A stretch of 31,631 bases of DNA from Acidimicrobiia bacterium (GTDB lineage Bacteria; Actinomycetota; Acidimicrobiia; UBA5794; JAOTWH01). The stretch lies in NCBI GenBank assembly GCA_029863035.1, contig JAOTWH010000003.1, positions 1 to 31,631 of the forward strand, read 5' to 3'. Below the pieces are notes generated by a model. It was not told the origin of the DNA and did not search any database. It was given only the letters and a program-made list of their open reading frames with translations. The first letter of the stretch is position 1. Each line of letters begins with the position of its first letter. Positions 3,977 to 26,083 of the stretch are shown here, piece by piece. The translations under genes were made by a program, and so were the position numbers.

Positions 3977-4020
3977 AGCCTCTCCTTGCGGGAGGGCCGG
4001 CGCGCGCGGGCGCACAGGCC
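3977..4020 (-). promoter_or_regulatory. Expression platform of the FMN riboswitch
   Basis: Between aptamer and ribD start are two mutually exclusive pairings. A GGGAGGCC strand (4024-4017, overlapping the aptamer closing stem) can pair with GGCCCTCCC (3998-3990). Alternatively GCCCTCC can pair with GGAG(A)GGC (3985-3979), which hides the ribD ribosome site. FMN binding would free the C-rich strand to cover the ribosome site. This predicts translational rather than termination control; no U tract is present. It rests on manual pairing only. Confidence 0.6.
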
Positions 4021-4136
4021 TCCCTTCTCTCATCCGGACTTTCACCGTCGGCCTCGGAATCTCACCGGGTCAACCTCTAAAGAGGTTCGCGGGCTTTCAC
4101 CGCCGGTCGGGAATTGCACCCTGCCCCGAAGGGGGG
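4021..4136 (-). ncRNA. FMN riboswitch (RFN element)
   Basis: The minus strand carries the conserved RFN blocks in order: GGGCAGGGTGCAATTCCC, GACCGGCGGTGAAAGCCC, GACCCGGTGAGATTCCG, and GCCGACGGTGAAAGTCC followed by GGATGAGAGAAGGG. The closing stem pairs CCCCCTTC (near 4136) with GAAGGG (4027-4022). A variable hairpin (AACCTCT / AGAGGTT) sits between the two halves. The element binds FMN and lowers expression of riboflavin genes. It lies directly upstream of ribD, as expected. Confidence 0.97.
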
Positions 4137-4192
4137 CCACCGCTGAGTTTAGCTCCGGTGCAAGGGTTGGCGGCCGGGGTAGCTTCCCGACG

Positions 4193-10951: not shown

Positions 10952-10979
10952 TTCTCGTTCCTCGTTTCTAGTTTCTCGT
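10952..10979. repeat. Four tandem heptamers, TTCTCGT-like
   Basis: TTCTCGT, TCCTCGT, TTCTAGT and TTCTCGT follow each other without a gap (28 nt). They lie in the divergent intergenic region between the MFS gene and the VPI-repeat protein. A second array with the same period and length lies at 25493-25520. No function is known to me. Confidence 0.7.
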
Positions 10980-11614: not shown

Positions 11615-11625
11615 CACCTTTGCTC

Positions 11626-11647
11626 CCTCCCCCGCTTGCGGGGGAGG
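11626..11647. terminator. GC-rich perfect hairpin between convergent genes
   Basis: Ten-base arms (CCTCCCCCGC and its complement) are separated by TT. It lies 11 bp after the stop of the plus-strand VPI-repeat gene and 90 bp after the end of convergent priA. There is no U tract on either side, so it may be a Rho-independent-like stop for both directions or a REP-like element. The flanking GGTCAGGTGGGGGT also occurs next to similar palindromes in other genomes, as far as I recall. Confidence 0.5.
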
Positions 11648-11697
11648 TCAGGTGGGGGTGGCGACCGCTACCGCGAACTTGCAGCGCGTCTTCATCT

Positions 11698-11732
11698 TCT
11701 GACGGGTTGACGAGCCCGAGCAGCGACAAATG
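11698..11732. repeat. Single short relative of the pilC-pilA structured repeat
   Basis: TCTG, a hairpin (CGGG at 11703-11706, CCCG at 11715-11718) and CAGCGACAAATG. The final 16 bases (11717-11732, CGAGCAGCGACAAATG) are identical to the end of repeat units B and B' near 26 kb. It lies 5 bp beyond the priA stop codon, in the same orientation relative to the gene as the unit abutting the pilC stop. Confidence 0.65.
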
Positions 11733-24897: not shown

Positions 24898-25356
24898 TTA
24901 CCAGCCGGAACCCCAGGTGCCAGCAGCTGTTCCCGGGTTGGTGGCGTCCCGACAAGGGAGCGTCGAGGCGGTGCCGCCGTTGCCGTACTCAGTACCCTGC
25001 GCCGACTCCTTCACTGCGAAGACGGTGCCGGACTCGCTCGTCACCTCCATGCAGACGGCGGTGTCCACGCCAGCACCCGCAATTTCCATGTCCATAGTCG
25101 TCAGATTCGGCTCGAACGTTCTCAGGGCAGTCATGTCGGCTGTATACACCTGGCTGTTCTCGGTCCAGTAACCCTTCTGGGCCAGCAAGCCGCTGCGGAG
25201 ATCGGACTGAGCCGACCGATCCTGAGCGTTCTTGCGGAAACCGATGAAGGACGGGATGGCGATGGCAATCAGGATTGCAATGATCAAAACGACCACCATC
25301 AACTCGATAAGCGTAAAGCCCTCGTCGGACGAGAGCCGCTCGCGTATCCTTTTCAT
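24898..25356 (-). CDS. pilA: Type IVa pilin (probable major pilin)
   Basis: This 152-residue prepilin has a 13-residue leader ending in G13, then FTLIELMVV with Glu at +5 and a long hydrophobic helix (14-36). The C-terminal domain has cysteines C102 and C135, which could form a disulphide loop, and ends in a Gly/Trp-rich tail. The ATG has an ideal AGGAGG 6 nt upstream. It is placed after 0.7 kb of non-coding DNA with repeats, and its own leader contains a terminator-like hairpin and a possible ribosome-site lock. Separate strong and regulated expression from pilBTC is likely. Confidence 0.92.
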   Translation of the reverse strand: MKRIRERLSSDEGFTLIELMVVVLIIAILIAIAIPSFIGFRKNAQDRSAQSDLRSGLLAQKGYWTENSQVYTADMTALRTFEPNLTTMDMEIAGAGVDTAVCMEVTSESGTVFAVKESAQGTEYGNGGTASTLPCRDATNPGTAAGTWGSGW

Positions 25357-25492: not shown

Positions 25493-25520
25493 TGCTCGTT
25501 TCTCGCTACTCGTTGCTCGT
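25493..25520. repeat. Four tandem heptamers, TNCTCGT-like (second locus)
   Basis: TGCTCGT, TTCTCGC, TACTCGT and TGCTCGT in direct succession (28 nt). Period, length and consensus match the array at 10952-10979. It borders the structured repeat array on the pilA side. Confidence 0.7.
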
Positions 25521-25557
25521 TCAAGGCCGGAGAACCCGCCGTTACAGGCCGTTCCCA

Positions 25558-25644
25558 AGGCGAGCCCATCGGGCGAGCCACGACTCAGATCTGGCGATCG
25601 CGGCAGCTGGAGTCTGGGCGGGCCCTGCCCGACCAGCGACCAAT
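25558..25644. repeat. Repeat unit A
   Basis: It begins GGCGAGCCCATCGGGCGAGC with a GCCC/GGGC hairpin, then the shared core. The second hairpin has arms CTGGGCGGGC / GCCCGACCAG with one mismatch and a 3-nt loop. It ends CGACCAAT. Confidence 0.8.
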
Positions 25645-25645
25645 C

Positions 25646-25773
25646 CACGACCCGCAAACCAAAGCGAGGGCTTCGCCCGAGCTACGACAGGGGTCTGGCG
25701 ATCGCGGCAGCTGGAGTCTGCTCGTGCCCTAGGTCGATTCAGCGTGTTGTGCTGCACGAGCAGCGACAAATGT
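25646..25773. repeat. Repeat unit B (128 bp)
   Basis: It begins CACGACCCGC and has a GGGC/GCCC hairpin, then the core, then a perfect 10-bp inverted repeat CTGCTCGTGC / GCACGAGCAG around 26 nt, and ends CGACAAATGT. It is identical to unit B' at 25956-26083. Confidence 0.85.
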
Positions 25774-25790
25774 GAAGGCAACTGCTCACC

Positions 25791-25876
25791 AGGCGAGCCC
25801 ATCGGGCGAGCCACGACTCAGATCTGGCGATCGCGGCAGCGGGAGTCTGGGCGGGCCCTGCCCGATCAACGACAAT
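25791..25876. repeat. Repeat unit A'
   Basis: It is nearly identical to unit A (about six differences, mostly at the end: CGATCAACGACAAT in place of CGACCAGCGACCAAT). The second hairpin is partly weakened by these changes. Confidence 0.8.
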
Positions 25877-25885
25877 GTCTAGGGC

Positions 25886-25953
25886 GCGGCAGCTGGAGTC
25901 TGCTCGTGCCCTAGGTCGATTCAGCGTGTTGTGCTGCACGAGCAGCGACAAAT
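25886..25953. repeat. Partial repeat unit C (3' part of unit B)
   Basis: It matches the last 68 bases of unit B (from GCGGCAGCTGG to CGACAAAT) without a difference. The first hairpin is missing, so it is a truncated copy. Confidence 0.8.
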
Positions 25954-25955
25954 TA

Positions 25956-26083
25956 CACGACCCGCAAACCAAAGCGAGGGCTTCGCCCGAGCTACGACAG
26001 GGGTCTGGCGATCGCGGCAGCTGGAGTCTGCTCGTGCCCTAGGTCGATTCAGCGTGTTGTGCTGCACGAGCAGCGACAAATGT
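25956..26083. repeat. Repeat unit B' (128 bp), abutting the pilC stop
   Basis: It is identical to unit B at 25646-25773. Its last base is directly next to the pilC stop codon at 26084-26086. Confidence 0.85.

What the first reader, a model, noticed from the sequence alone, without database searches (positions are those of the whole stretch)
25558..26083. Structured repeat family between pilC and pilA with compensatory base changes
Five related units fill the pilC-pilA gap. Units A and B share a conserved core but differ elsewhere, and the differences keep two stems paired. First stem, aligned over 25 positions without gaps: A has G-CC-C/G-GG-C, B has G-GG-C/G-CC-C, that is two C-G pairs replaced by G-C pairs. 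Second stem, 10 bp: B is perfect (CTGCTCGTGC / GCACGAGCAG), A keeps 9 of 10 pairs with two pairs exchanged (C-G to G-C, T-A to G-C) and a loop of 3 instead of 26 nt. Paired changes in an otherwise conserved sequence point to selection on a folded RNA or single-stranded DNA, not on protein. It could be a non-autonomous mobile element of REP or MITE type, or a pil-linked RNA.
Basis: seen in the sequence. Interest (0 to 1): 0.8.

Follow-up and report, generated by a model that had tools for sequence, protein, structure and literature searches.

The report
Dispersed folding DNA repeat family
Five copies of a small folding DNA repeat sit behind a pilus gene; related copies lie scattered through seven related genomes, often just behind a gene's end and beside 7-letter tandem repeats, and what moves them is not known.

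Summary
Observation confirmed, and wider than the pil locus. The array (25553-26083) holds five head-to-tail units; B and C are identical over 128 nt. A covariance model of window units found the element in genome G629; enlarged models found it in 7 of 395 genomes of the class with 59 matches. Neighbours are mostly unrelated housekeeping genes. The right hairpin (HP2) stays paired through two-sided changes: in 38 copies aligned in one register 33 pair perfectly, 7 of 11 columns change on both sides, and 34 keep one bulged base near the foot. G-T and A-C mismatches are equal (3 and 3), so nothing points to RNA; template switching could also make paired changes. Placement is polar: the right end lies within 40 nt of an opposite-strand stop codon in 24 of 36 cases, and heptamer tracts lie on the left (43 of 44). 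The window shows both. IS200/RAYT transposase was found in 0 of 34 genomes, integron integrase over cut-off in 0 of 34. Some sites are shared between genomes. Best reading: a non-autonomous REP/MITE-like hairpin repeat, mobiliser unknown; new variant of a known kind.

The parts
25495..25521 (+). heptamer tandem tract (CTCGTTT CTCGCTA CTCGTTG CTCGTT) left of the array; a neighbour feature, since such tracts also occur without the element
   Evidence: lag-7 run; same side as 43 of 44 tracts around copies in relatives
25553..25645 (+). unit A
   Evidence: R1 108.6 bits
25559..25579 (+). HP1 of unit A: 3 + 4 bp around tandem G-A mismatches, 3-nt loop
25614..25636 (+). HP2 of unit A, 9 of 10 bp, 3-nt loop
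25646..25773 (+). unit B (identical to C)
   Evidence: 132.5 bits
25663..25683 (+). HP1 of unit B
25718..25763 (+). HP2 of unit B, 10 bp, 26-nt loop
25786..25878 (+). unit A', HP2 partly decayed
   Evidence: 99.7 bits
25879..25955 (+). unit B', HP1 lost; extra stem CTAGGGC/GCCCTAG at the truncation
   Evidence: 57.1 bits
25956..26083 (+). unit C, ends at the base before the stop codon of pilC
11622..11732 (+). copy D: right end clear, left half unlike the others; 5 nt from the priA stop codon
   Evidence: 32.5 bits
26084..27307 (-). pilC, whose stop codon the array abuts (neighbour, not part)
   Evidence: T2SSF domain
24898..25356 (-). pilA-like pilin gene downstream (neighbour, not part)
   Evidence: N_methyl motif

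Best explanation
The array is a cluster of a dispersed, non-autonomous structured DNA repeat of about 115-145 bp: a left end, a first hairpin (HP1), a conserved core around GCGGCAGC and a right hairpin (HP2) with one bulged base near its foot. Shown: many copies in 7 related genomes, HP2 pairing kept through two-sided changes, polar placement (right end close to gene 3' ends, heptamer tracts on the left), neighbouring copies always in the same orientation. Inferred: the element spreads as a folded single strand recognised by the bulged HP2 through an unidentified ssDNA-processing enzyme and settles just downstream of genes; head-to-tail duplication then made the five-unit array between pilC and pilA. 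Any effect on pilA expression would be a by-product.
For: R1, built from window units only, hit G629 at 40.9 and 27.5 bits; all other listed hits in 138 genomes were 24.0 bits or less. R3 rang in 7 of 395 genomes (at most 9 candidates per genome scored) and gave 59 matches at E<=0.1 in 9 genomes searched more deeply. HP2: 39 of 62 copies have an 11/11 stem, 60 of 62 at least 8/11, stems chosen for best pairing; in the 38 copies in one register 33 are perfect, 7 of 11 columns change on both sides, 4 never vary, and 34 have a paired foot with a 1-nt bulge. Covariation score on 17 picked arms 0.492 against 0.151 in shuffles, 0 of 500. Of 86 neighbouring proteins none matches a transposase, recombinase or reverse-transcriptase family by name; 21 have no Pfam family. 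Right end within 40 nt of an opposite-strand stop in 24 of 36; left end within 65 nt of a stop in 2 of 28. One further copy (L145) ends 4 nt from the 3' end of an opposite-strand tRNA-Leu gene. Neighbouring units within 300 nt: 20 pairs same orientation, 0 opposite. pilC-pilA gap 112-304 nt in seven relatives against 727.
Against: No mobiliser: Y1_Tnp in 0 of 34 genomes, integron integrase over cut-off in 0 of 34, no copy with a gene inside among the 12 stretches read. No target-site duplication and no empty/occupied pair of one copy was shown. No copies in plasmids, phages or viral contigs. The window's own HP2 stems are not among the 39 perfect ones (B 10, A 9, A' 7 of 11).
Confidence: 0.55

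Rival explanations
1. A 3' element that works as RNA on the strand of the upstream gene: the hairpin directly behind the gene protects or processes the transcript, and selection, not insertion preference, explains its place.
For: The right end abuts stop codons in 24 of 36 opposite-strand cases and a tRNA 3' end in one; REPs are reported within 20 bp of gene 3' ends and thought to be transcribed (PMC3733652, section 15); some sites are shared between genomes.
Against: G-T and A-C mismatches in HP2 are equal, 3 and 3 in register, 4 and 4, 15 and 20 in the looser count, where RNA on either strand should favour one; the numbers are small. 19 of 55 copies face the start of a same-strand gene. No Rfam match.
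Confidence: 0.2
2. The paired changes come from template switching inside palindromes during replication; the repeat is passive and nothing recognises the fold.
For: Perfect stems with few wobble pairs; B' has a fresh extra palindrome at its truncation point; the mechanism is described in PMC8794818 (abstract and start of introduction).
Against: It does not explain dispersal to dozens of places, the conserved core, or the bulge kept in 34 of 38 copies in register, which arm-to-arm copying should erase.
Confidence: 0.14
3. A classic MITE of a DDE transposon, with terminal inverted repeats and target duplications.
For: Length, copy number and intergenic place.
Against: The two ends are no more alike as inverted repeats than shuffled ends (mean score 11.4 against 11.6, 60 copies); no inverted-repeat pair found around the array.
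Confidence: 0.05
4. A pil-specific regulatory RNA.
For: Place between pilC and pilA in the window; two of 86 neighbours elsewhere are Tad-pilus parts.
Against: The other neighbours with a Pfam family are of many kinds; R3 finds no copy above 18.2 bits in 38 PilC loci of relatives.
Confidence: 0.02

Closest known systems
GTAG-tagged REP sequences with RAYT / TnpA-REP (IS200/IS605-like Y1 transposase)
   Same: Dispersed intergenic palindromes close to gene 3' ends; an irregularity in the stem, which E. coli TnpA-REP needs (PMC8266576, passages).
   Different: Longer (about 115-145 against 20-40 bp), two different hairpins with a conserved core, GTAG/CTAC within the right 50 nt in only 9 of 63 copies, neighbouring units always head to tail, no Y1_Tnp in 34 genomes.
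CGTC-tagged REPs (Di Nocera et al. 2013)
   Same: Reported to lack a dedicated transposase and to lie near gene ends (PMC3733652: abstract, passages, sections 7 and 15).
   Different: CGTC REPs have 8-9 bp stems, 4-5 nt loops, a CCA tail and mostly head-to-head dimers; here 11 + 3 bp, loops mostly 22-32 nt, head to tail.
Integron attC sites
   Same: Folded single strand with bulged bases, variable sequence, kept structure, arrays (recalled; PMC8266576 passages draw the parallel to IntI).
   Different: RYYYAAC on the left in 2 and GTTRRRY on the right in 0 of 63 copies (motif recalled); no integron integrase over cut-off in 34 genomes.
Heptameric simple repeats of bacteria (Xanthomonas, Nostoc)
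   Same: 7-bp period tandem tracts between genes (PMC4692102, passages).
   Different: Here the heptamer differs from tract to tract and lies on one side of a structured repeat (43 of 44); 14 tracts also occur in 184 kb of control loci, so they are a neighbour, not part of the element.

Membership tests
REP / RAYT (GTAG) | GTAG tetranucleotide at the foot of the hairpin | tested here: not met
   GTAG or CTAC in the right 50 nt in 9 and the left 50 nt in 7 of 63 copies, below what chance gives for two 4-mers (chance by my arithmetic). B and C have CTAC behind HP1.
REP / RAYT (GTAG) | Y1 transposase (PF01797) in the genome | tested here: not met
   0 of 34 genomes, including all 7 with the element; control rang in 5 of 14. 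Completeness of these genomes is not told, and the window's genome is not held.
REP / RAYT (GTAG) | many dispersed intergenic palindromic copies near gene 3' ends | tested here: met
CGTC REP | 8-9 bp stem, 4-5 nt loop, CCA tail, CGTC tag | tested here: not met
   Stem and loop; features from PMC3733652. Tag and tail were looked at by eye only.
MITE | terminal inverted repeats | tested here: not met
   End-to-end inverted similarity equals shuffles, 60 copies; boundaries known only to a few bases.
MITE | target-site duplication | tested here: inconclusive
   No empty/occupied pair of one copy available.
Integron attC / CALIN | integron integrase | tested here: not met
   TIGR02249 over cut-off in 0 of 34 genomes; weaker matches in all 34 and in all 14 controls. 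CALINs need none.
Integron attC / CALIN | RYYYAAC and GTTRRRY boxes at the ends | tested here: not met
   Both together in 0 of 63 copies (motif recalled).
Known RNA family | match to an Rfam model | tested here: not met
   Window: only an FMN riboswitch elsewhere; array and two relatives at lax threshold: only matches far below gathering scores.

The most novel reading that the evidence does not exclude
A single-strand hairpin element with one-way targeting: it settles directly behind gene 3' ends (protein genes and at least one tRNA gene), in one orientation relative to the gene, with heptamer tracts on its far side, moved by an enzyme outside the two hairpin-processing families tested (Y1 transposase, integron integrase).
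Probability: 0.2. Interest if true: 0.85.

Novelty: new variant of a known kind. Interest (0 to 1): 0.6.

Why it matters
REP-like repeats without a known transposase are an open question (PMC3733652 says so of CGTC REPs). Here is a larger family in a lineage where no Y1 transposase was detected, with a polar placement against gene 3' ends and heptamer tracts and a kept bulge. That gives two handles for finding the enzyme: the bulged HP2 as bait and the stop-side end as the insertion site. The G-T versus A-C count is also a simple way to ask whether covariation in a DNA repeat speaks for RNA.

Tried and rejected
An exact core pattern over viral contigs (1 hit, read as chance), the array against plasmids (none), a longer core pattern over genome contigs: 6 single hits in unrelated organisms, one of them (Cryobacterium) in the same phylum, taken as chance from the listing (this exact pattern did not bring in the relatives' copies). 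BLAST of the array against the 14 genomes of the family of G583: short matches, the best one 48 nt, five contexts read, taken as chance. R1-R2 hits of 25.4 bits or less in G513 and G611 were not used: broken pairs, and open frames of 175-545 aa span them. tRNA origin, because two copies contain GGTTCGA: 58 loci scanned, two tRNA genes found, none overlapping a copy, one abutting. Copies with a gene inside: 20 stretches fetched, 12 read, none found. Copies of the relatives' form in viral contigs, plasmids and phages: none. The relatives' right-end pattern does not occur in the window, so the link rests on the models and on the intermediate copies of G629.

Weak points: R1-R3 were built stepwise, each with hits of the one before; E-values are from a short calibration. 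HP2 arms were chosen for best pairing, and 22 of 60 fall outside the main register; column counts are therefore given from the 38 in register (13 distinct arm pairs). One search used 17 arms that I picked, two or three out of register. Gene calls are from my own codon-usage script; it missed rpsO beside L102 and tRNA genes; copies in one cluster are not independent. For the left end I allowed 65 nt because the model starts about 25 nt inside the element. One search's control loci overlap in part. Of 91 neighbour frames 86 were scanned; five short ones were left out. One search's 24 same-orientation pairs include 4 that are pieces of one copy; 20 remain.

Full report
Setting. The window is a chromosomal stretch with, on the minus strand, aroE-pilB-pilT-pilC-pilA-second pilin-pilD-pilM-pilN-pilO-aroC-aroK-aroB-pepQ-efp-nusB (names from the translations and recall; pilB, pilT, pilC, pilA and priA also by Pfam; several by tblastn to relatives). 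Its EF-P protein matches genomes of the phylum of a Cryobacterium contig, up to 69%, so the phylum is taken as Actinomycetota. The class is not named by the tool; Acidimicrobiia is my recall. No genome is held for the window. The nearest genome found is G583 (PilC 74% over the 156 residues held, AroC 70%).

Observation. Five related units lie head to tail at 25553-26083. HP1 in two window units and three G629 copies pairs in 94.1% of cells with 4 pairs changed on both sides; 0 of 500 shuffles reach the covariation score, 65 of 500 the number of such pairs; tandem G-A mismatches are kept in all five.

Insertion. In seven relatives the gap between pilC and pilA is 112-304 nt between the tblastn ends, stop codon included (an eighth contig ends before pilA); in the window it is 727 nt, of which the array takes 531. 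R3 finds nothing above 18.2 bits in 38 PilC loci of relatives, some of which end soon after pilC. In G583 the gap holds heptamer tracts but no array; in the window such a tract lies at 25495-25521, just left of the array. So the array seems to have entered between the pilC stop codon and a heptamer tract. This is the nearest thing to an empty site that I have.

Family. Model R1, made from window units only, was run over 138 genomes of the order of G583: two hits in G629 (40.9 and 27.5 bits) stood above all other listed ones (24.0 bits or less). One of them (L085) has the window's right end CTGCTCGG...CCGAGCAGCGACAAA and the tail AAGGTATTG of other relatives. R2 added two more copies in G629 and copies in G593 and G500. 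R3 over 395 genomes of the class, drawn evenly from a larger group and with at most 9 candidates scored in each genome, rang in 7 at E<=0.02. A deeper search of 9 genomes gave 15, 20, 3, 8, 1, 6 and 6 matches at E<=0.1 in G593, G361, G500, G574, G597, G625 and G629, and none in G611 and G583. BLAST with one G361 copy gave 100 places, whole and partial, 50 of them in G361. In the 14 genomes of the family nearest to the window no convincing copy was seen (BLAST; R2 over the order gave only G513 at 25.4 bits there), so the distribution is patchy.

Structure. In 62 distinct copies I chose the best 11-bp HP2 stem: 39 pair 11 of 11, 60 at least 8; none of the 39 is a window unit. Of these 60, 38 lie in one register (13 distinct arm pairs): 33 are perfect, 7 of 11 columns show two or more Watson-Crick types, 4 never vary, and of 418 cells 7 are not Watson-Crick, 3 G-T, 3 A-C and 1 T-T. 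Over all 60 the count is 4 and 4 of 660; a looser one gave 15 G-T and 20 A-C. A foot of three further pairs, mostly GTC/GAC or TCG/CGA, is paired in 36 of 38, with one unpaired base between foot and stem in 34. On 17 picked arms the covariation score is 0.492 against 0.151 in shuffles, none of 500 reaching it; slid controls give 0.03-0.09. RNA stems are commonly held to pass through G-U pairs (PMC8794818, introduction); equal G-T and A-C counts give no sign of selection on one RNA strand, though the numbers are small. Template switching makes paired changes in one step (same paper, abstract), so covariation alone does not prove selection. The kept bulge and core argue that something recognises the fold.

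Placement. With my own gene caller, 59 copies outside the window were placed. The gene on the right is on the opposite strand in 36 and on the same strand in 19 (p 0.03, copies in clusters not independent). Its stop codon lies within 40 nt of the right end in 24 of 36 (median 20, two overlapping), against 3 of 19 for same-strand starts; a stop codon lies within 65 nt of the left end in 2 of 28 (Fisher p 1.6e-6). In L145 the right end lies 4 nt from the 3' end of an opposite-strand tRNA-Leu gene, so the neighbour need not be a protein gene. In the window C ends at the base before the pilC stop and D ends 5 nt from the priA stop. Of 44 heptamer tracts around the copies outside the window 43 lie on the left, 30 of them within 150 nt, and 1 on the right. 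In the 160 nt upstream 30 of 58 copies have a period-7 run and none of 62 downstream; other periods give at most 1, apart from the harmonic 14 (24) (window units included, one of them an inside-array run). Heptamer tracts also occur without the element, 14 in 184 kb of control loci. Neighbouring units within 300 nt are in the same orientation in 20 of 20 pairs. Of 86 neighbouring proteins 65 have a Pfam family (such as rpsO, rplM, glmS, hpt, ribH, tsaD, pfk and proteasome types, two Tad-pilus parts, one PD-(D/E)XK nuclease); no transposase, recombinase or reverse transcriptase is among them, and 21 have no family. Three kinds of site recur: before rpsO (G574, G625, G629), beside an FtsH type (G593, G625), beside FAD_binding_5 (G500, G574) (rpsO beside L102 read from the sequence). 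Such copies are old or the sites are reused.

Mobiliser. Y1_Tnp was found in 0 of 34 genomes (control positive in 5 of 14). The integron integrase model is over its cut-off in 0 of 34; weaker matches occur in all 34 and in all 14 controls and are taken as ordinary tyrosine recombinases. No copies in viral contigs, phages or plasmids by the queries used (one search gave one hit read as chance).

Literature. REPs near gene ends and CGTC REPs without a transposase: PMC3733652 (abstract, passages, sections 7 and 15). Bulge needed by TnpA-REP of E. coli: PMC8266576 (passages). Heptameric repeats: PMC4692102 (passages). A table row for Acidimicrobium ferrooxidans in a survey of predicted REPs: PMC12306157 (one passage); whether it overlaps this family is unknown. 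Searches showed no description of this family in their listings; the library lacks most subscription journals.

Verdict. A real, structured, dispersed repeat family, REP/MITE-like in habit, failing those defining features of REP/RAYT, CGTC REP, MITE and attC that I could test. Shown: copies, pairing, polarity. Inferred: movement as a single strand and its enzyme.

Noticed in passing
window 4018-4137 (-): FMN riboswitch (115.4 bits) upstream of the riboflavin genes.
   Followed up: no
window 11620-11668: A different REP-like hairpin (TCCCTCCCCCGCTTGCGGGGGAGGTCAGGTGGGGG) directly left of copy D.
   Followed up: no
window 10954-10979: A second heptamer tract (CTCGTTCCTCGTTTCTAGTTTCTCGT) without a copy of the element beside it.
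   Followed up: no
window 25879-25914: At the truncation of B' a perfect palindrome CTAGGGC/GCCCTAG joins the older stem, as a template switch would leave it.
   Followed up: partly
L173, L175, L176, L177, L178, L179, L180, L181, L182, L183: Several G361, G574 and G625 copies carry nested hairpin modules of the type CAGTTGCTTCGCAACTGC in place of or inside HP1 or HP2.
   Followed up: partly
L121, L152, L168: The right end (3' arm plus tail) is repeated in tandem behind some copies.
   Followed up: no
L145:597-680: A tRNA-Leu gene whose 3' end lies 4 nt from the right end of a copy on the other strand.
   Followed up: partly
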